This document shows positions 40,697-58,610 of a stretch of 64,000 nt of DNA, one piece after another; position 1 is the stretch's first letter; each line of letters begins with the position of its first letter. The position numbers were made by a program, and so were the translations under genes. Under the pieces are notes generated by a model. The model did no database searches, was not told where the DNA came from, and saw only the letters and a program-made list of their open reading frames with translations. Source of the stretch: Antedon mediterranea. Taxonomy: Eukaryota; Echinodermata; Crinoidea; Comatulida; Antedonidae. The stretch lies in NCBI RefSeq assembly GCF_964355755.1, contig NC_092676.1, forward strand, positions 17,218,288-17,282,287. The letters run 5' to 3'.

Positions 40697-43600
40697 ATGC
40701 CACCTAAAAAACGCAAGGTAAGAAAGAGGAGGTTGCCACATATACCGGATAGAATAGAAGTTTTCAGAGAATGTTATATTTATAGGCCCAACCAGTTTTG
40801 CTTAATTGATTAATTTAATGAAAAAAACTGCCTTTTTTTATGTTGAGCTTATGAAAGCATGTCAAACTATAGAGGGCGCTATAACAAGTTGAACAATATA
40901 TCAAACCATAGAGGGCGCTTTAAAAATAATAGTAAACATAGGTTGTCAGACGTGCCAATCCAGTAGCATCTCATTATCTCGCTTATTTTTTTAAACAACG
41001 CATGAATTGATTATAAAATAACAGTTAACACCTTACCTTGCAGACCAATTAGTATAAATATTAATATATGTTTTCTATTCTCAAATTGCATTGTTAATGT
41101 TAACGGGACAGCATGTGAGATGACTCAAAATAATATATTTAGAGACTCTGCCATTATCAAGAGAGTTGTATATTGCCAACTTTTTCAGTGGCCAATGCAT
41201 GAGTCATTATTAAATTAAAATTGTAGATAGTGCCCTCTATGTTATAATAACTCAAAATAATCGCGGAATAGTATGTTTAATTTTTCGCCGAATTGAGTTT
41301 GGCTTTCCTGTACTACCTCAACCATAAAATACAAATAAACATAGTCCTAGGCTATGCTCAAATTAATTAAAGTGTAGTCCTAAGCTATTTTTTCTTCAAA
41401 ATAGGCAAGTTAATTTCAAAATAATGTTTTTCTGAATATTTTTTATGGATGCGTGAGAAATAACTACATATGCGTGAGGCATAACAAATTGGCCCTGTGT
41501 GAGAGTTGGCAGGTGTAGAGTTGAGAGGTTTATTGTTGACACGGCCAACAGAACTGTCCATTTGCTTTTTATTCAATGTTTTATTGGAACTGGCAACCGT
41601 GCACTGCGCCAGACTGTGCTCCTTGATTCTGTCTTTTCTAAAGACACACAAGAGAGATGCTTATTTATTCTCATTTAATATTTTTTTATATCAATGTTAT
41701 TGTTAATTTTTTAATGCATTTTTTAAATTTTATTATATATGTATATATTTTCATATAACTATTACCCATTCAAAATTAAATCAGTTTTTCCTTCTTCTTT
41801 TCAGGCTGATGACGAGGGTGAAAAAAGTGATGATTCAAAACAGAAAAAGGCAAGTAGGCCTTATATTATAATAAATTATCATATTTTTTTATGAACCCCA
41901 GTGGCAGATTTATCAAAACGAGATGAGTCTCAACAAAGAATCAGGAAGTCTAAAAAAAATAATAATTTCAAACTGTTCTTTGTTTTTAGGTTGAAGATCC
42001 AGAGAATGGTTCAAATGATTTTAAACAAACCAAGGCTAGTAAATTATGTTTTTACATCACAGCAATTCCAATGAGCATACAGTAGTCAGTAAAATAAGAT
42101 CATGAGATTTTATTTTTTTTAAACTTCTAAAATGTCCAAAATAAAATATAGCATACAAACAATCAAGACAAAAATTAATAAAAAAACTCTTTAGTATTGA
42201 TTAAATGATTTGAGTAAATTTAATTTTTAGACTGAGGGAACAGAATCGAATCCAATACCAGAAGATGCCAACACCTTGGAGCCAAGTACAGAAAAAAAAT
42301 CAGAGAGTGGAGAGTAAGTAATATCAGATTTATTATGAAAAACATTTTACATTAATTCTGGTCAAAAGGATACATTTAAAAAATGTGACCTCGTATATTC
42401 TGGGATTTTGAAAAAGAATATACATAATAATATTTATTAAGCATGCATATTCACCAAAAGTGCTCAAGGCGGTTGTGAAAAATTAAAGAAAAACTAAAAA
42501 TTCCTAATTTACCTAAAAAAATAGACAAAACCCACATAACTGCATTCGGTGACAGTCCAAAGGCAAGGATCTATAAAAATTAACTCACCCCAGAAACGTA
42601 CAGGTCTAGGTCAACAAGTTCAAGGTGATAGCCAGATCCAAACCTTGAGAAGGCATGTACCACATGAGCAACTCACGAAAGTATGCTGGACCCTCACCTT
42701 GATCATTGATCAGAATTTTGAATAATAATCTTATGGCAGGCTGACATTAGCTGAGAGCCAGTGTTATTGGTTGTGTTTGCCTCTATAGTATCCAAGCAAC
42801 ATTTCACACCACATTTTCCCTTTTGAGTTTTATATATTAATGGATGATGATGTACTGTATCCCCAACGAATCATTTACGGTAGATCATTGATGGCTTACT
42901 CTACCTATGTTTCAGCAGTTGAAACATTTTTTTAAAATGCAAGACTCCATTATGATTCTATTCTTTTCTGTATTTTTAGAACATGGAACTTAAAAATCTC
43001 CTCATGGAATGTGAATGGTTTAAGAGCATGGGTCAAGGTATTGTTTCTATACTTGTTTTGCTTTTTGATTGAAGTTGGTCTACATGCTGTTTGAACGCAT
43101 TGAACTGTACAATCTCTCAAAACTAAGTTAGCAAGAAGAAGAATCTTGAATTCACAAACAAAAACAATTTAATTCTAAATGCTTGTTGATGTCAAGTGTT
43201 TTGGGTTTGATGTTTAATTTTAACACTATCCAGTCCCAGTTGGACAACTTTATATTCACCGAAAAATCAGAATATTAGTTCAGCTATAGTTTATTTATTA
43301 TCTATTTAAACTGGGTGACCTCTACAGTCAAAGACTGGTCTCTCAGAGGGCCCAGTTATGATCAGTGGCTGTGAGTGTACTTGTACACTGGTGTAACCCC
43401 ACTACTCATCTCGAAAGATGTATTTAGGTTTAAAGTGCACATGAGCTATATGTGCACACTGAACCTACGGTATAATGTCCCTATCCGAGAAGACTCGTTC
43501 TTGCATGGAGCAAGTGATCTCAAACTCTTGCCGATGTTATGGCTGCATAATTTTGATTCCACGGTCTTAAACACTCGCTCACTCACTCGTACTTATAGAC

Positions 43601-46600
43601 TGTAGACATTCAAATAAAAATTCCTGGCTTCAGTCAGACCATCTCTCCATTGAATAATATTATCTATTTATTCAGTTCTTCTACCATCGCCTTCCTTTTA
43701 CACATATCTCTCTCTGTTGTTACCATCACCAACCTTTTCCAATGATAATGCTTCCTCAATTTTGGTCTTTTTACTACTTCCAGCATACTGTTCTACAAAC
43801 AATAGAAATTCTATAGCTAGAGTTACCCTTTAAAACTGTTTACATATTCTAAGCTCTGTCTACACTATCAGACTAGTTTGTCAAAAAAGTTTGATATGCC
43901 CAAATATGGTAGTGATATGCCCAAATAAGTTAGTGATATGAAATCATAAATGCACATCGCATTTTTTGTCACATAAAGTTTGATAGTGTAGACTGGGTTT
44001 AACAAAAAAAAAGTTCTGTTCTTTTTTTTTTCACAGAAAGATGGTTTTAATTTTTTAAAACTGGATGACCCAGATATTCTTTGCTTTCAAGAGACCAAGT
44101 GCAATGAAAAATCACTTCCAAAAGAGTGTCATATTGATGGTTATCATAGTTACTGGCATGAAGCTGAGCAGGCTGGGTATGCTGGCACTGGTATTATGTC
44201 AAAGGTCAAACCATTGAATGTAACATATGGAATAGGTAAACTTAAAGAATAATCTGTTTTGATTTTAATCGGATTCCCTTTGCAAAAAAGCCGTATACGT
44301 TCCGTATACGCTGAAAACGTGTACGACGTATACGGATCGTATACGATTTCACTGTTTACATTATTTCCACTCTGTTGCTCCACAAAGAGTTGGCGTCGTA
44401 TATGTTTAGCATACGTAACGTATACGTTGTTTATTCATGATAAGAATATCGTATACGGGACGTATACGAATCATATACGAACAAACTAGGCCATTTTATA
44501 AATTATAATAGCAGTAATGAGTAGAATAGAGCTAAATAAAACATTTAAATTGTCATTACAACAAATACGTACGTAGGCTCTGGCCTAGAGGGCTAGGCCT
44601 AGCTAGCTCCAGCCATTAGATAGGCCTAGTCTATAGTAGTATTAATTATTAGTAAGTAGCCTAGTAGGAGGAGCTAGTACATAAGATCATATTTATTTCT
44701 ATATTTATTAGATAGCCTAGGCTACCGATAAAATTCAAACAACGTTTTTCGCAAGTAAATAAAGTACGCTAAACAGGTATATACTACTAGGTAGGCCTAG
44801 AAAAAACAAGGGGCCATTTTCACAAATCGACGATGTTGTTTGCAGTTTTCCTTTATAAAATATGACAGAGGTCAGTAAGTGCAGCCGCCGACGACGACCG
44901 AGCGTCGCTCGGTTGCCTACAGTTCCAACTCGTGGTCGACTCGGCTCCCTGGTGGCCAATCATGCATATCATCGGGTGAATCATCGGGTTCGTCGTTCTC
45001 AATTCGTCACGCCACGTGCGAGCTTTGGGTGGTCAAATTACATCGTTATGTTAAGTGCTATTATTCCGCGACGTGTGTTGTAGCAATGGACATGGAGTAA
45101 CAATAATTCGGCAAATAATGCCGAAGAGGAAAACCATGACCCAAAACAGAAGTGGGGTCATTGTATAATATAATAATAATTATTATTTAACGATGAATAC
45201 ATTCGGATTTTGAATATGAAGTCGATCACTTCCGCCGAGGAAAAAAAAAAACACAATTAGTGGTGATAGTAAATACAATTATATCGAATCTCAATTTATT
45301 CCCGGTAGCGAACAGATTGAATTGCTTTCATTTATCTCAGCGGTATTTCTGCTTGGTGATTAAGAAATCATAAAACATATCTTTCTTTATTTTCATGGTA
45401 TTCCAATATGTTTAAAAAATAACTACCCTCAACTTTAAATAACAAATTAAATAAGTCTACTAAACATTGTTGATTTCCCATGGACCCAACAATACCCCAA
45501 CTATTTCATTAATAATTGTTTATTTGTAACAGTTTATTTGAAATCCTTGTCCTTTGTTAATTCAATTGTGTGACAATTAAATTAGATTGTACATGCTTAT
45601 GCTGTTAATTATGTAAAAAGATGATTCATGGTATATATCAGATTCTTAAAAAAGATCAACACTTTGAATTCTCAAAATGTGTTCTATATCTTTATTTGGA
45701 GTTAGACTTGTACTACATTCATTAAAATGATAAACAAATAGCCGGCAGGCGTGTGTACAGAGGGGGCACAAAAAAACTATTACCTACTAATATTGTACAC
45801 AGTTTTATTACATCCTTTTTTAAAGTAACACTAACAGTGCATATTCAATATTATAGTAAAACGTCAATACGTAGTTACGAGGCGGTATCAACTAGGCTCA
45901 TAGTTGTTTACCACTCCACGCCAATGATATGAATAAAGCCTATCCTATTAAATAGTATCGCGCCCGCGCATATACAAAAAAAAGTTACAAAGGTTCACAT
46001 ATTTATATTAACGATTTTTTTTTTTGATTTACGAATTAAATAATAAAAATAATTAAATACCGCTCGGCTTATCAATGATGGAGGCATAAACATGGGGGCG
46101 TAGGGTACCATTTTACCAGGGAGATGTAAAATAATTATTTAACAAACATTTAACTGGTTGGTTTTACTGCGTTCGCGTACAATTTATCATTTCGATTTTT
46201 TAAGTTATATGTAGGTTATGTTAAATTGTATTTATCAGTGAAAACTCTAGGAAATTTACAGCAATTAGTTCTGTATGCCTAAAATAGTAAAATGCTCTAA
46301 ATAAAAACGTCGGAGCTTCTTTTTTGTATTTCTGGCTGTTGAATGTTTTGTTGGCACCGCCTAACTCTGCAACGATGATATCCATAATACATCGTATTTC
46401 CATTTCACCGTTGTTGATATACTACTAGACGTAGGTTATTAAAATAATACAATATAACCAAATCTAATATATGGGGGAAAGCTAGCTAGCTTATTTTCAC
46501 AATGAGTGTACCACAGACTCTTTTCCTTGGCGTATTTTCCCCAGGCCTAGTTACTCTTAGTTTACTAGAGCTGCTGCAGTAGCTATATACTGCATATTCG

Positions 46601-49600
46601 ATATATACTGTACAATTACAATATGCCTATAGCCTAGCTAGCTAGAAGTCATCGAATTTACTATCTACCTGGGCCTACTGTAACTAGGCCTACATCCCAT
46701 TATTTTTTTTTTATGGTGAGTTAAAACCCGTAGCCAAAAAATCAACAATGATGATTGAAAATGAATGAAATCTGATCCATCCATGTGATGCATGCATGCA
46801 GCGCACATATAACACAGGCACGTTTTGGGTGAATTTATTTGGATCATTCCATATATATAATAGGGAGCCACATGTATTCTACGTTTTTATTAAATCGTAA
46901 TTTATGGATTTTACTTACTCGTTTTAAATTTAATATACTGCGGGCCCAATTTAATATTTATTTATTTATTTCCAAGTACATTAATATTATTTAAAGCACT
47001 TTCAAATTAATAACAGCACATTTTGTGTGATTCACTTATTAATGGAACATACAAAAGGTAAAGAAATAGCAGAGGGGATAAACAAGGCAGAACAGCCTGG
47101 GTGGGTTTTTATGCTTGCTAGAAAAACAACGTCTAGTAATTTACAGCACCAATTTTTTCATTCGCGAAAACTATGAAGTAAATCATCATAGGGAATTTAA
47201 TGTATATACCGACTGAAAAAAAAACAAATTGTACACTAATTATTGAAGTCAAGATGCTCCTGCGGTCGTAAACGTATGCTATCGACGTCTTGTAAAAAGA
47301 GGGACAGTCCCTTTTCGCTTGGTAATACGATGTAGTTTGTATACACGCGTCGTCGTATACGGATCATATACGGATCGTATACGGAGCGTATAATTAGGAA
47401 ATTGTTTATAAATGATCGTATACGGTTCGTGTATGTTTATTATGCGGGCAGGAACTTCCAAATTGACGTATACGTTTCGTATACGAAGTGGACTTCCTAT
47501 ACGAAACATATATGAAACGTATGTAAATCGTATACGTTCGTATACCGTTTTTTTGCAAAGGGTTGCCTCCACTTGCAGATCTGTATTTTTTATAATATAA
47601 TTTTTAGTAATGCAACTATTGTGTTCTCTAGGCCTACTCTTGCTGTGACTGTGGTGTTTTGTGGCCATCAAGGCCATCCTTCAGTGGTGAAGTACCTTTG
47701 GGTCGATCCTCTACTATTTAGACTGTTGTGTACACTATTGAATGTTTATGTTAAAAGATTGACTTTCATGCTTTCAACCATTTAAAATATCTTTTTAAAA
47801 TATGACACACAAACTTTATCCAAAGTTTATTTTTATTTATTTATTGAAATACTGTAGGCCTCTTCCATCTTGGATATAATATCAAAAGCTTGGCCGTTCA
47901 AAAGCTAGGACTTGGATTTTTTATAATATTCAATCATGCACCACAATCTCAATATTACAGCTTATGTGTTTATATAATGCTGTATATTGTCGCAACATTG
48001 CCTGTCGCATAGCACATTCGTGATTCAGTTATTTTTCAGTACTTTGTATTTATAGGTTGTGATAAACATGATAAAGAAGGGCGTGTCATAACTGCAGAAT
48101 ACGAGAAGTTTTATCTTGTCACTTCATGTAAGTACTTTATTATTCGTTATTTAAAAAAAAATTGAATTAGATTTTGTATGCAAAAAAAATAACTGCATAT
48201 GTGTATAATTGGTAAGCTTTGCAAATCGTTTTCATTTAGCTTTATGCTTATTTTATTTTGTATTTCCATTGAGATCCATGCAACTGATATCCACAGCCAT
48301 TGCCATTCTTTCAGTAATTTGCCTTTGAATTTAGATATATTTGAATTGATTTGATTTGTACAGATGTATTTAAACATAAGTTTACAAATTGAACTTATGT
48401 TTTTATAGCCTAGACATCCACATGTGTTTAGAAATCCTGGATCTGCCCCTGAACCAATTTGTTAGGACACACAGCTAACATTTACTTGTATAGTTAAAGT
48501 TGTCATGATTGTCAACATTGATTGAAAAAGGTTAAAAGGACCTTTTCTACTTGACAAGTAAAAGTGTTTCTAGACTAAACTAAAGAAACAGATGTGACAT
48601 TAAACATATTAAACACCTTAGAATTCAAACAAGTTTGAGATATTTACAAATTAGAATTCAAGTTTTCAGAAAGATCATCTCTTGATCATAATTGCATCAA
48701 GAAATGTTTGTTAAAGAGAAGGAATCGTTCATATGTGATATGTAATGACACTTTACAGTTTTCTTTAACACTTTTTTATATTGTTTATGAGCCATGTTCT
48801 TCTTAATGTCCTACTTATAGTTAAATAGAAATTGTATTTGTTTAAAAATGAGTCTAAAATGCTACTGTAACGTTTGTGCGTTACTTTGTGTTATTACTGA
48901 ACTTTGCTTTTGCACCAATTATTGTAAATGTGGGTGTGGGCTTGTGGAACAGTGGTCGTATTCACCATTCACACTTAAGGAAACCCTTAAAATTAAGACA
49001 AATCTCCTATCTAAGTGAATACAATTTAAGGGAAATACTTTCAAATTCACTGCAAAACATAATATTTTTGTTTTGTGTTTTTGTAGTATTTTTTAAAAAT
49101 ACTTGTAATATTTAAAAATACTAAATTAGTTAAATATATTTTAGATAATTATTTAATTAAAAAAAATATGATGTTACATCATTTAATACTACTAGTTCAA
49201 GTTGTCCAAACTTCACAGATGTTTAAATAGCCCCCTCCCCCCTCTATTTTCTATTTTGGATTAAATCAGGTTAGAAATCTAGTATTATTATGACAGTAAA
49301 AATGCATTAGAATTGAGACCTTGATCATAATTGCATATCAAGATTTGTTGAAGAGTGACAATCTTTCGGATGTTGCTTTTAATCTTTATTTTATTGTCAC
49401 TCTGCAATCAACTTTAACACTCCTGAGCAATCTTCAGTTTATGAGCCAGGCTTTTGAAATGTCCTAGTATTACTTATAAGTATTTTTGAAGAGAGTTGAT
49501 AATACTGTATACCTAAATACATGTACCTGTCAACTCTGACGCATAATCCAAGAGTCTCACGCATGTTAGCCGCATTCATACACAGCTATAACACGCATCT

Positions 49601-52554
49601 ATAAAATGTTCAGAAAGAACATTATTTTAAAATTAACTGGCCAATTGTGAATAACATATACCTGAATTATTAATTTTAGTTTAGCCTAGGCTTTTATATG
49701 TATTTTTATGGTTGATCTAACATAGGAACACCTATCTTTTCAGTGGGAAATTAAACCATTATTAAAACATGCTTTAGGCCTATACATTTTTTGCCTCATT
49801 GACCACTAAAAAGCAGGTGTTAAGTAGGAAATACAGTAATATTTTGTTTTTAGTTTGAATACATTATTATTTATGGTCAACAATAAAACAACATACCTAG
49901 ATACCAAAAAAAAAATTTAATAGCAAAAAATTATATTTTCCACGAAAACAGATTTAAAAAAAAATCAAATGATTGATTTGCCACATTATTTCACTGAAAA
50001 GTAATATATTTAATATTCCGTCATTAAATATTTAATACAGAGGCGTCATTGTGAAAAGTAAGAATTAATTTATTTATTAATTTATCGTTTAAAATTAATT
50101 AATTAAATTTCAGTATATCACCGGGAGGTTTAGAATTACTGTTCTTTGCCTGATTTGTTTATATATATTAACACAGCAGGCAAAGAACATTAATTCTAAA
50201 CCGCCCGGTGATATACTGAAATTTAATTAATTAATTTGAAATGATAAAGATGAGGAAATCTGTGAGAATGAGAAAAAGTCCCCTCAACCGAGACTCGAAC
50301 TCGGACCGTCTGCTTGTTCAAACACGATTGGATAGCGACTCTTTAACATTCTCAGCGTGGTACGGCGGAACAGCACTAGTCCTCAGTTGTACGCATGCAC
50401 AACAGAGATCAAATTGATACCCCCTCATCTTTCAGTATTTTTATTCACGAGGCGAGATCTCCAAAGAGATACTTTTATATATATAAACACAGTAGGCAAA
50501 GAACATTAATTCTAAACCGCCCGGTGATATACTGAAATTTGAATTAATTAATTTGAAACGATAAAGATGAGGAAATCTGTGAGAATGAGATATATATATA
50601 TATAAAAAAAAAATTGAGGGCTCTACAACATATTAATATATATATATATATATATAAATCCAAAGGCAAATTACTGAAAAAAATGACAATGCTGTGGGTA
50701 TCAGTGGCTGGATCTCAATGGAGATACAAAAATAAAAAGCGAAAAGCTAAATCAAAACGATAAAGTAAACAGCCAGAAAAGTTAGCAGAGCTTTCGGGCA
50801 ACACTAGCCCTTCATCAGTGCAAGTGAAGGAATTTGGATAACGTCAAAGTGAGTGAGTGGCCGAGCGGTTAAGACAGTGGAACCGTAATCACGTAGCCAT
50901 AACATCGGCAGGGGTTCGAGGCTCACTCACTCCATGGTTCTGGTGGTAGAACGAGTTTTCTCGGATAAGGACTATAAACCGTAGGTCCAGTGTACACAAC
51001 TTGCTCGTGTGCACTTTAAAGAACCTAGTACATCTTTCGAGATGAGTAGGGGGTTACCCCGGTGTATTAGTACATCACAGCCACTGATCACCAACTGGGC
51101 CCTCTGGGAGATCAGTCTTTGACTGAAGAGGTTACCCAGTATAAAGATAAAAAAAACAAACAAACAAAGTATAAAGCTGGCAAGTGCTGCCTGGGTGGAC
51201 AGGAATAAAAGAAATATAACAAAGGGAGCCAGGGTGGAGTCTGAATAAGAGTGGAAAACAAAGAAGGTAGCTTGGTAGAGATATAAACAATTTTGGAATG
51301 AGACTAAAAAACAGCTTAAATGGTGGTTAATATTGAAACTTAAATTTTGGTAGTCAATGGAATAATTTGGAATTAATTCTGGGAGTATGTTCCTAATGTT
51401 AAGTCCAAAAGGTTTTGTGGTTTTAAGTAGTAATTCCCGGTGGTTTTCATATATATATAAACACAACAGGCATAGAAATAAATTCCAAACCGCCCGGTGA
51501 TACACTGAAAATTATTTAATTAATTTTTGAAACGATAAAGATGAGGAAATCTGTGAGAATGAGAAAAAGTCGCCCCAACCGAGACTCGAACTCGGCCCAT
51601 CTGCTTGATATGCAGTTGCCCTAACCATTAGACCACTGAAGCTTTCATGGTATTGTTCTTTACTCGATCGGATAACGACCCTTTAACATTCTTGGTGTGG
51701 TACGGTTGGAACACAACTAGTCCTCAGTTGTACGCACGCGCACCAGAGATCAAATTGATACGCCCTCATCTATAATTCAGTATATTTATTCACTAAGCGG
51801 GATCTCGAGAGATACTTATATATATATATAAACACAACAGGCATAGAAATAAATTCCAAACCGCCCGGTGATACACTGAAAATTATTTAATTAATTTTTG
51901 AAACGATAAAGATGAGGAAATCTGTGAGAATGAGAAAAAGTCGCCCCAACCGAGACTCGAACTCGGCCCGTCTGCTTGATATGCAGTTTCCCTAACCATT
52001 AGACCACGGAGGCTTTCATGGTATTGTTCTTTACTTGATCGGATAACGACCCTTTAACATTCTCGGTGTGGTACGGTTGGAACACAACTAGTCCTCAGTT
52101 GTACGCACGCGCACCAGAGATCAAATTGATACGCTCTCATCTATAATTCAGTATATTTATTCACTAAGCGGGATCTCGAGAGATACTTTTATATATATAT
52201 AAACACAACAGGCATAGAAATAAATTCCAAACCGCCCGGTGATACACTGAAAATTATTTAATTAATTTTTGAAACGATAAAGATGAGGAAATATGTGAGA
52301 ATGAGAAAAAGTTGCCCCAACCGAGACTCGAACTCGGACCGTCTGCTTGATATGCAGTTGCCCTAACCATTAGACCACTGAGGCTTTCATGGTATTGTTC
52401 TTTTACTCGATCGGATAACGACCCTTTCACATTCTCGGCGTGGTACGGTTGGAACACAACTAGTCCTCAGTTGTACGCACGCGCACCAGAGATCAAATTG
52501 ATATATATATATATATGATGAAGAAGGGCTAGTGTTGCCCGAAAGCTCTGCTAA

Positions 52555-58500: not shown

Positions 58501-58610
58501 TTTGATAAACAACTTTTATTCAATTACAGTCAATTTCTATTCAGTAAACTTTGATAAACAACTTTTATTCAATTTTCAGATGTTCCAAATGCCGGAAAGA
58601 AGCTAGTAAG
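40697..58610 (+). CDS. APEX1: AP endonuclease 1, eight coding exons visible, 3' half outside the window
   Basis: The main endonuclease of base excision repair, cutting 5' to abasic sites. Exons are 40697-40717, 41805-41849, 41990-42034, 42231-42313, 42980-43037, 44037-44235, 48056-48127 and 58580-58610 (about 184 residues so far). The N-terminus has an SV40-like nuclear signal (PPKKRK) and a polar tail. The catalytic fold starts at [14 protein letters not shown], with the active-site Asn. [12 protein letters not shown] carries the metal-binding Glu. [31 protein letters not shown] and [12 protein letters not shown] follow. The active-site Tyr codon is split across intron 7 (T|AT). The GDLNVAH-like block and the catalytic His are not found before 64000, so the gene continues. 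Exons 2 and 3 end in GC donors. Intron 6 (3.8 kb) and intron 7 (10.5 kb) are full of mobile elements. An upstream in-phase ATG at 40493 would add 68 residues. Confidence 0.95.
41805..41849 (+). CDS. APEX1: APEX1 microexon 2 (45 nt, GC donor)
   Basis: Fifteen codons, [15 protein letters not shown], phase 0 at both ends. The acceptor is TTTTCAG. The donor is AAG followed by GCAAGT, the classic GC-AG form; a GT further on would put the next exon out of frame. Compare the next exon. Confidence 0.85.
41990..42034 (+). CDS. APEX1: APEX1 microexon 3 (45 nt, GC donor)
   Basis: Fifteen codons, [15 protein letters not shown], phase 0 at both ends. The acceptor is TTTTTAG. The donor is AAG followed by GCTAGT. 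The only nearby GT (GTAAAT, four bases on) would force a stop in exon 4. It has the same length, phase and residue pattern as exon 2, 140 bp upstream. Confidence 0.8.
43285..43592 (-). mobile_element. tRNA-headed SINE with Deu-like core, copy B
   Basis: Complement of the family at 28886. The head is near 43520-43590 (ATTATGCAGCCATAACATCG, CGAGTGAGTGAGCG). The core has ACCTAAATACATCTTTCGAG and GAGTAGTGGGGTTACACC. The tail is near 43290. It lies in APEX1 intron 5. Confidence 0.85.
43851..44000. mobile_element. MITE family M1, copy 6
   Basis: Left end AAGCTCTGTCTACACTATCA and right end TTTGATAGTGTAGACTGGGT. The centre has TGCCCAAATATGGTAGTGAT, partly duplicated. The right end is about 36 bp before APEX1 exon 6. 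Confidence 0.8.
44268..47566. mobile_element. 3.3-kb element with terminal arrays of CGTATACG
   Basis: The ends are inverted: CCCTTTGCAAAAAAGCCGTA on the left at 44276 and TACCGTTTTTTTGCAAAGGG on the right. Each end is followed inward by about 200-240 bp packed with the 8-bp palindrome CGTATACG and one-base variants, roughly ten per arm (44290-44475 and 47335-47550). The interior (44480-47270) has AGGCCTAG clusters and a GC-rich stretch (44880-45060), but no transposase I can name. The CCCTTTGC end recalls piggyBac, but the flanks (GATT and TTGC) are not TTAA, so the superfamily is open. It sits in APEX1 intron 6. Two independent solo elements flanking the interval are an alternative. Confidence 0.65.
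48205..48345 (-). repeat. Dispersed repeat shared with 50655-50770
   Basis: The complement reads AAAGGCAAATTACTGAAAGA, then GGATCTCAATGGAAATACAA and AAAGCTAAATGAAAACGAT, in the order seen at 50660-50762. The hammerhead-like motif that follows the second copy is not visible here. Confidence 0.65.
50103..50225. repeat. Inverted repeat around a TA-rich loop
   Basis: AATTTCAGTATATCACCGGG on the left is answered by CCCGGTGATATACTGAAATT on the right. TTCTTTGCCTG and CAGGCAAAGAA lie next to a loop of about 25 bp. The right arm leads into the first copy of the repeat unit with the damaged tRNA-like part (50279-50318). Confidence 0.8.
50782..50819 (-). ncRNA. Hammerhead-ribozyme-like motif
   Basis: The minus strand reads CTGATGA, then AGGGCTAGTGTTGCCC, which can form a GGGC/GCCC stem II. 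GAAA follows, then GCTCTGC as a short stem III and TA as a possible cleavage dinucleotide. The order fits a type I hammerhead with a very short stem III, as reported in Penelope-like elements. One extra A before stem II and the lack of a clear stem I leave activity in doubt. Confidence 0.45.
50847..51168 (+). mobile_element. tRNA-headed SINE with Deu-like core, copy C
   Basis: The best-preserved head: GTGAGTGAGTGGCCGAGCGG then TTAAGAC (A box), GGGGTTCGAGGC (B box) and closing CTCACTCAC. The core has GTGCACTTTAAAGAACCTAG and GAGTAGGGGGTTACCCCGG. The tail is an AAACAAACAAACAAAG run. The head looks like a Ser/Leu-type tRNA with a long variable arm. Confidence 0.9.
51571..51642 (-). tRNA. tRNA-like sequence, unit 1
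   Basis: 72 nt. The minus strand has acceptor GCTTCAG / TTGGGGC (with G-T pairs), A box TGGTCTAATGGTTAGGGC, T arm CCGAG-TTCGAGT-CTCGG and a TTTTT stop just after. The anticodon loop ATATCAA would give anticodon ATC, which is not a usual animal tRNA. It is more likely a tRNA-derived repeat than a working tRNA. Confidence 0.5.
51942..52013 (-). tRNA. tRNA-like sequence, unit 2
   Basis: Same layout as unit 1. The acceptor is GCCTCCG against TTGGGGC, with one mismatch. The D arm carries GGGAAA instead of GGGCAA, and the anticodon loop is again ATATCAA. Confidence 0.5.
52313..52384 (-). tRNA. tRNA-like sequence, unit 3 (best pairing)
   Basis: Acceptor GCCTCAG pairs fully (with G-T) to TTGGGGC. 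D stem GTCT/GGGC, anticodon stem CTGC/GCAG, T stem CCGAG/CTCGG and discriminator A follow, then CTTTTTC. It could still be transcribed by Pol III. The open frame reported over this area (52254-52457) is an artefact of the tRNA-like sequence. Confidence 0.55.
52517..52556 (+). ncRNA. Degraded hammerhead-like motif, inverted copy
   Basis: TGATGAAGAAGGGC then TAGTGTTGCCCGAAAGCTCT. The core has extra bases compared with 50782-50819, so it is unlikely to be active. It is inverted relative to that copy. Confidence 0.4.
53664..54705. mobile_element. piggyBac-like non-autonomous element with TTAA duplication
   Basis: TTAA at 53660-53663 and at 54706-54709 flank inverted ends CACTTTGACTGCCA and TGGCAGTCAAAGTG. 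The length is 1042 bp. Near the right end CGAAGATCTTCGTGTTTGGC occurs twice, which looks like a duplicated terminus. The interior has AGGCCTAG clusters (54115-54190) and no open frame of note. The TTAA site is the one inside the SINE core word CACATTAAAGAAC. Confidence 0.8.
54887..56577. mobile_element. hAT-like non-autonomous element, 1.7 kb
   Basis: Inverted ends CAGGCCCGTATGCAG and CTGCATACGGGCCTA, with a 5-bp CACCT on both sides as target duplication. The left end runs into a G tract and the right end into a C tract, as in many hAT ends of the CAGGCCCGTA type. Five-base duplications are known for the hAT5 group. The interior has three spaced TTTCCGGGACCT / CTATTTTTCAAA repeats (55855-56105) and two GCTCGCTTCGCTCGC palindromes. 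No transposase is present. Confidence 0.7.
56578..56697 (-). rRNA. 5S rRNA-derived sequence (SINE head), not a working 5S gene
   Basis: The minus strand follows 5S rRNA from the GGCCATA start through the box A and box C words. It differs at many sites and its last bases lie on the far side of the hAT-like insertion (54870-54886, TGCTGTATA). It is best read as the head of a SINE3-type element. Confidence 0.75.
57780..57878 (+). mobile_element. LINE 3' end with TTGAATTGAATT tail
   Basis: The sequence TACGCGACAAGAAGACAATC, then GATAAAATAAAATAATTGAA and TTGAATTC, is the 3' UTR and microsatellite tail typical of CR1/L2-like LINEs. The element at 3200-4165 has a tail of the same kind. No coding part remains. 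Confidence 0.5.
58472..58579 (+). repeat. Tandem 49-bp duplication ending at an APEX1 splice acceptor
   Basis: CAATTACAGTCAATTTCTAT followed by TCAGTAAACTTTGATAAAC occurs at 58472-58520 and 58521-58569. A third start, CAATTTTCAG, supplies the acceptor of exon 8. Each copy therefore contains decoy AG sites (ACAG, TTCAG). Confidence 0.85.
58580..58610 (+). CDS. APEX1: APEX1 microexon 8 (31 nt)
   Basis: Completes the Tyr codon and encodes [10 protein letters not shown] up to a split codon. The acceptor is AATTTTCAG and the donor GTAAAC. It is the last exon found. The next should begin with the rest of an Arg codon and a LEYR-like sequence, beyond this window. Confidence 0.9.

What the first reader, a model, noticed from the sequence alone, without database searches (positions are those of the whole stretch)
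41805..42034. Tandem pair of 45-nt APEX1 microexons, both with GC donors
Exons 2 and 3 have the same length (45 nt) and the same phase (0/0). Their residues line up ([15 protein letters not shown] and [15 protein letters not shown]), and both end AAG before a GC-AG intron. This suggests an exon duplication in the disordered N-terminal tail of the repair enzyme. Because each is frame-neutral with a weak donor, each can be skipped. The tail could then vary by 15 or 30 residues, which may affect the many partners that bind the APE1 N-terminus. Lengths, phases and donors are read directly; regulation is inference.
Basis: partly seen in the sequence, partly recalled or inferred. Interest (0 to 1): 0.72.

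Follow-up and report, generated by a model that had tools for sequence, protein, structure and literature searches.

The report
Two similar tail exons, GC donors
The gene for the DNA-repair enzyme APE1 in this animal has two short, neighbouring, look-alike exons that both use a rare but well-known splice signal; they probably arose by copying one exon and are probably normally kept, so this is a neat but modest gene-structure oddity.

Summary
In an intact APEX1 gene (11 coding exons, 322 aa), exons 2 (41805-41849) and 3 (41990-42034) are each 45 nt, phase 0/0, and followed by GC (AAG|GCAAGT, AAG|GCTAGT). The GT lying 4 nt into each intron leads straight to TGA in all four joinings tried. Duplication is moderately supported: peptide similarity p 0.004-0.005; last 21 nt 15/21 alike, p 0.015; exon end plus donor 21/27 against at most 16/27 in 629 other donor pairs. 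Whole-exon DNA identity is not significant (p 0.12) and flanking introns show no significant likeness, so it would be old. The skipping inference is untested and not favoured: apart from +2 the donor contexts are good, other exons of this gene are also tiny (one of 31 nt encodes catalytic core), the complete protein is close to human APE1 in length (322 vs 318), and human APEX1 mRNA isoforms reportedly encode one polypeptide (PMC6651865). Most likely both exons are normally included. No transcripts or related species could be examined. New member of a known kind; low interest.

The parts
40697..40717 (+). APEX1 coding exon 1 (MPPKKRK, NLS-like), GT donor AAG|GTAAGA
   Evidence: joins in frame with all downstream exons
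41805..41849 (+). APEX1 exon 2, 45 nt, [17 protein letters not shown] donor AAG|GCAAGT
41850..41989 (+). intron 2, GC-AG, 140 nt
41990..42034 (+). APEX1 exon 3, 45 nt, [17 protein letters not shown] donor AAG|GCTAGT; probable duplicate of exon 2
42035..42230 (+). intron 3, GC-AG, 196 nt
42231..42313 (+). APEX1 exon 4, rest of the disordered tail, GT donor
42980..43037 (+). APEX1 exon 5 (58 nt), start of catalytic domain, GT donor
44037..44235 (+). APEX1 exon 6, catalytic domain, GT donor
48056..48127 (+). APEX1 exon 7 (72 nt), catalytic domain, GT donor
58580..58610 (+). APEX1 exon 8, 31 nt, [11 protein letters not shown], catalytic core, GT donor AAG|GTAAAC; exons 9-11 lie beyond the window

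Best explanation
Exons 2 and 3 are genuine coding exons of the disordered N-terminal tail of APEX1, normally both included. They are followed by two U2-type GC-AG introns in which U1 tolerates the +2 mismatch because the rest of the donor fits (AAG|GCAAGT very well, AAG|GCTAGT moderately). They most likely descend from one exon that already had a GC donor and was duplicated in tandem long ago, which explains equal length, equal phase, two GC donors in a row and the residual in-register similarity. Shown: sequence, frame, lengths, donors, an intact full-length gene, and that the neighbouring GT sites break the frame. Inferred: inclusion, U1 tolerance, duplication and its age.
For: The full gene with both exons encodes an uninterrupted 322-aa APE1. 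Full-length APE1 chains in the PDB are 318 aa (e.g. 6boq_A, 1e9n_A; that these are human is recalled), with query residue 50 on chain residue 43 and no gap up to the catalytic domain start: inclusion gives a tail 7 residues longer than theirs, skipping one exon 8 fewer, skipping both 23 fewer. Frame 0 of each exon is open and tail-like (hydrophilic fraction 0.93 and 0.87); frame 1 is also open but less so (0.57, 0.50); frame 2 has stops. All four readings tried with a +4 GT donor hit TGA at once. Donor contexts 8.03 and 4.45 against 0.16-6.33 for the five GT donors scored. Duplication. GC looks rare here: 37 of 48 junctions tried in chaperonin, HSP90 and proteasome genes are clearly GT, none credibly GC, and the other 8 APEX1 introns are GT. 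GC donors elsewhere adhere more closely to the rest of the consensus (PMC2490688, passages).
Against: Whole-exon DNA identity is not above codon shuffles (p 0.12; local alignment 0.13-0.14). Upstream 60 nt give p 0.62-0.72 and downstream 60 nt 0.08-0.16; only exon plus 60 nt flanks gives 0.017-0.026, by single-base shuffles that do not allow for shared splice signals. Three overlapping or neighbouring 15-mers of an unrelated charged ORF, and one stretch at 45111, score as high against exon 2 as exon 3 does, so composition explains part of the likeness. In human and mouse GC-AG introns have weaker donors and acceptors on average when +2 is scored, and GC-AG genes are more prone to alternative splicing (PMC7242645, passages), which does not favour constitutive use. 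Eleven of the 48 background junctions were not resolved as GT (10 ambiguous, 1 flagged GC at a poor score), so the local GC rate is only loosely bounded. No transcript or ortholog was seen.
Confidence: 0.6

Rival explanations
1. Regulated cassette exons: the GC donors keep inclusion partial, so tail length varies by 15 or 30 residues between tissues or stages, or one exon replaces the other.
For: All three skips keep the frame. GC donors are enriched in alternatively spliced genes, and the C. elegans let-2 GC donor is needed for developmental regulation (PMC2490688, passages). [quoted passage not shown] An 18-nt inverted repeat flanks exon 3.
Against: Good donor contexts apart from +2. Human APEX1 mRNAs are reported to differ only in untranslated exon 1 and to encode one polypeptide (PMC6651865, passages). 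The inverted repeat is reached by 0 of 1000 shuffles but is matched at 7 of 656 window positions and 2 of 151 AT-matched ones. Tiny exons are general in this gene.
Confidence: 0.17
2. Not a duplication: two independent tail exons, or one ancestral exon split by intron gain, that happen to share length and GC donors; likeness comes from lysine- and acid-rich composition.
For: No significant whole-exon DNA identity or flank similarity; scan over end lengths p 0.13; other charged stretches reach similar scores; shared AAG ends follow from splice consensus.
Against: Equal length, phase and GC together; 21/27 in-register identity at exon end plus donor against a maximum of 16 in 629 other pairs (not matched for A content); A-rich AAG-ended pairs from the window reach 15/21 in 0.18% and 23/45 in 1.3% of 40,000 draws.
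Confidence: 0.3
3. Poison exons: the spliceosome uses the +4 GT, so inclusion brings a stop and mRNA decay, and the productive mRNA skips both exons.
For: In GYNNGY donor pairs, when the first dinucleotide is not GT splicing tends to occur at the second (PMC4267661, section 16); the +4 GT of both exons leads to immediate TGA.
Against: The +4 GT sites are poor (1.93 and -1.49); both 45-nt frames read as tail sequence; full inclusion gives a human-like length.
Confidence: 0.05
4. Assembly error or a rare allele: the GC is really GT.
For: Only one assembly was seen.
Against: Two separate T-to-C errors would be needed, both at donor +2, in an assembly whose fetched contigs are 22-41 Mb long.
Confidence: 0.03

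Closest known systems
Tandem exon duplication in animal genes (about 10% of animal genes, as cited in PMC9013439, passages)
   Same: adjacent exons of equal length and phase with residual similarity
   Different: here similarity is weak and in a disordered tail; that study's search detected nothing below 57% identity, so this 51% pair would escape it; nothing shows mutually exclusive use
GC-AG U2-type introns, e.g. let-2 intron 10 of C. elegans (PMC2490688, passages)
   Same: GC donor with otherwise good consensus
   Different: two in a row after similar exons; regulation not shown here
Human APEX1 gene (five exons; isoforms differ only in untranslated exon 1; PMC6651865, passages)
   Same: same enzyme, similar total and tail length
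   Different: here 11 coding exons, tail spread over exons 1-5, two GC-AG introns
GYNNGY tandem donors (PMC4267661, section 16 and passages)
   Same: GC and GT 4 nt apart at both donors
   Different: the GT alternates are weak and out of frame; no evidence of use

Membership tests
APEX1 / APE1 | conserved exonuclease III-type catalytic domain close to known APE1 | tested here: met
   phmmer with the first 174 residues: E 7.1e-40 to APEX nuclease 1 chain 2o3c_A, E about 1e-37 to 318-aa APE1 chains; full 322-aa frame
U2-type GC-AG intron | GC at donor, AG at acceptor, otherwise U1-type donor consensus | tested here: met
   AAG|GCAAGT and AAG|GCTAGT with pyrimidine-rich AG acceptors; they do not look like the U12 donor consensus (recalled)
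U2-type GC-AG intron | actual splicing at the GC site | not testable with these tools
   no transcripts available
Tandem duplicated exons | equal length and phase | tested here: met
   45/45 nt, phase 0/0
Tandem duplicated exons | sequence similarity beyond chance | tested here: inconclusive
   protein p 0.004-0.005; last 21 nt p 0.015, whole exon p 0.12, scan over lengths p 0.13
Mutually exclusive exons | only one of the pair per transcript | not testable with these tools
   the frame allows both, either or neither
Mutually exclusive exons | competing intronic RNA pairing | tested here: inconclusive
   one 17/18 inverted repeat around exon 3, matched at 7 of 656 window positions; no competing partners were sought
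Microexon | length 51 nt or less (definition in the abstract of PMC12064062, seen in the listing) | tested here: met
   45 nt; stricter cut-offs of about 27-30 nt (recalled) are not met

The most novel reading that the evidence does not exclude
A duplicated pair of GC-donor exons acts as a two-step length switch for the APE1 tail, with tissue- or stress-dependent inclusion of 0, 15 or 30 residues directly after the NLS-like start, tuning nuclear import, RNA binding or partner choice. That would be a splice-regulated tail where human APE1 relies on protein modification and proteolysis.
Probability: 0.12. Interest if true: 0.55.

Novelty: new member of a known kind. Interest (0 to 1): 0.25.

Why it matters
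If the duplication holds, it is a small natural case in which a rare GC donor was copied along with its exon, showing how consecutive GC-AG introns can arise by one event. If skipping were regulated, the APE1 tail, which in humans controls localisation and partners, could be dosed by splicing. As things stand it mainly warns gene predictors: software that allows only GT donors would drop 30 residues of APE1 here or introduce a stop (inference).

Tried and rejected
Retrocopies that would record exon usage: searches of G000 with the first 151 residues and with the first 252 nt of coding sequence returned only pieces of this gene (3 matches; 4 matches); G000 searches can miss weak or withheld matches. 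A third copy of the exon in introns 1-4: none convincing (best other stretch scores 16). Structure around exon 3: 0 of 1000 shuffles reach it, but 7 of 656 window positions and 2 of 151 AT-matched ones do. Flank similarity: not significant. Phylum from mitochondrial COX1: no match in G000, so the organism was not identified; a paper search on crinoid genomes was a guess and was not used. Tail homology to mammals: the tail part of the alignment is weak and low-complexity, so only the offset at the domain start is used. Seven paper searches ran; those aimed at APE1 tail or splice isoforms were 11, 39 and 48, and of what I opened only PMC6651865 spoke to it. Passages of PMC5709841 and PMC9741552 were seen and not relied on; the latter notes that homology between disordered duplicated exons is hard to detect.

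Limits of the counts: one search used 47 of the 56 PF00118 matches; one search used 45 of them, and pairs with model gaps over 15 or under -25 were skipped; 30 junctions tried, 24 clear GT, 6 unresolved, none GC. One search used 13 of 24 PF00227 matches and all 18 PF00183 matches; 4 pairs were skipped, 18 tried, 13 clear GT, 4 unresolved, 1 flagged GC with score -14 and a 25-residue mismatch, probably a missed exon. The myosin matches were not used for this. One search used exon 8 one base off (corrected), which affects one of its 36 donors; 2 of its 26 chaperonin donors are from junctions unresolved; its 629 pairs are not matched for A content. One search used exons 1, 5, 6 and 7 with ends wrong by one to a few bases, corrected; exons 2-4 were right throughout. 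An earlier count said 19 of 30 junctions were resolved; that count was hasty and is superseded. In one search two other xth-family exons on C9 (6.81 Mb) may be another AP endonuclease gene; not examined.

Full report
What is there. The window lies at G000:C7:17218288-17282287 of a 354-Mb assembly. A gene for the AP endonuclease APEX1 has its first coding exon at 40697 and runs off the window; its last exon ends at G000:C7:17301361. I rebuilt it from exons in the window and three fetched pieces: 11 coding exons of 21, 45, 45, 83, 58, 199, 72, 31, 113, 184 and 118 nt, giving an uninterrupted 322-aa protein. Among solved structures the nearest are APEX nuclease 1 (2o3c_A, E 7.1e-40) and 318-aa APE1 chains (that the latter are human is recalled). 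Searches of the assembly with the first 151 residues and the first 252 coding nt found only this gene (3 and 4 matches), within the stated limits of searches in G000. The xth family model gives 143 matches, most of them long single-frame ones that I take to be retroelement endonucleases (inference).

The two exons. Exon 2 (41805-41849) and exon 3 (41990-42034) are as described: 45 nt each, phase 0/0, acceptors ending CAG and TAG, donors AAG|GCAAGT and AAG|GCTAGT. A GT lies 4 nt into each intron, an effect of the donor consensus itself. Using it in exon 2, in exon 3, in exon 2 while skipping exon 3, or in both gives a TGA right after the codon that spans the junction. These GT sites are weak: 1.93 and -1.49, on a scale where exon 2's GC context scores 8.03, exon 3's 4.45, and the five other scored donors of the gene 0.16 to 6.33; position +2 is not scored. 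So a productive mRNA that includes the exons should use GC.

Is GC unusual here? The other eight APEX1 introns use GT. In chaperonin, HSP90 and proteasome genes of the same assembly I tried 48 junctions; 37 were clearly GT, 10 were unresolved and one was flagged GC at a poor score with a 25-residue mismatch, probably a missed exon. Human protein-coding genes have about 0.8% GC-AG (PMC7242645, passages), and animals average 98.3% GT-AG (PMC7072748, passages). Two in a row is therefore uncommon, but a genome with very many introns will hold some by chance (inference).

Are they duplicates? For: equal length, equal phase, both GC; peptides 6/15 identical with p 0.004-0.005 after fixing the last lysine; the same levels are reached by 4 (score) or 14 (identity) of 6555 pairs inside part of an unrelated charged ORF. 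DNA likeness sits at the 3' end: 15/21 in register, p 0.015 under codon shuffling, 0.026 if the best 21-mer anywhere is allowed; random A-rich AAG-ended pairs of the window reach it in 0.18% of draws. Exon end plus donor match at 21 of 27 positions; 629 other donor pairs from this genome reach at most 16 (not matched for A content). Against: 23/45 overall has p 0.12, a scan over end lengths has p 0.13, local alignment of the exons has codon-shuffle p 0.13-0.14, and the flanks alone are not significant (60 nt upstream p 0.62-0.72, downstream 0.08-0.16). Four 15-residue stretches elsewhere in the window, three of them in one charged ORF, score as high against exon 2. The finding was also picked by eye from a long window. 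I put duplication at about two in three.

Are they skipped? Nothing here shows it. Small size is no hint: exon 8 has 31 nt, is not a multiple of three, and encodes [11 protein letters not shown] in the catalytic core. Alignment to a 318-aa APE1 chain puts query residue 50 on residue 43 without gaps to the domain start, so inclusion of both exons gives a tail 7 residues longer, while skipping gives 8 or 23 fewer. Exon 1 alone carries the NLS-like MPPKKRK; in human APE1 the first seven residues hold the NLS and Glu12 and Asp13 help (PMC8231204, passages), and exon 2 opens with ADDEGE at about that place (inference). Human APEX1 mRNAs differ only in untranslated exon 1 (PMC6651865, passages). Exon 2 is 76% purine and exon 3 62%, the rest of the coding sequence 57%, which would suit splicing enhancers (inference).

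An inverted repeat (41945-41962 with 42110-42127, 17/18) flanks exon 3 and could in principle loop it out. None of 1000 shuffles reaches it, yet equally good ones occur at 7 of 656 window positions and 2 of 151 AT-matched ones, so I give it little weight.

Verdict. What would change this is transcript data and orthologs, neither of which the tools hold.

Noticed in passing
window 58580-58610: A 31-nt exon ([11 protein letters not shown]) in the APEX1 catalytic core, isolated between introns of about 10.5 and 6.4 kb.
   Followed up: yes
G000:C3:19.6-25.1 Mb: At least 19 copies of one myosin-head exon (model about 342-408) and 12 of another (about 564-641) with similar scores spread over 5.5 Mb of one chromosome, nearly all on the minus strand: an apparent large myosin heavy chain expansion. 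Only 65 of 334 candidates were scored.
   Followed up: no
window 41945-41962 and 42110-42127: Inverted repeat of 17/18 flanking exon 3; strong against shuffles, ordinary against the rest of the window.
   Followed up: yes
window 44290-44490 and 47320-47560: Clusters of GTATACG-like palindromes in APEX1 intron 6, bounding about 3 kb; possibly ends of a mobile element (read by eye).
   Followed up: no
window 50130-52520: Several near-identical tRNA-like repeats (GAGACTCGAACTCGG...) in APEX1 intron 7, looking like a SINE inserted repeatedly (read by eye).
   Followed up: no
window 41805, 41990, 42231: Exons 2, 3 and 4 all begin NNTGA (GCTGA, GTTGA, ACTGA), so entry shifted as by a 4-nt donor slip stops at once in exons 3 and 4.
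   Followed up: partly
G000:C9:6810217-6810471 and 6814589-6814705: Two minus-strand exon-like matches to the xth family (model 172-255 and 1-40), perhaps another AP endonuclease gene such as APEX2.
   Followed up: no
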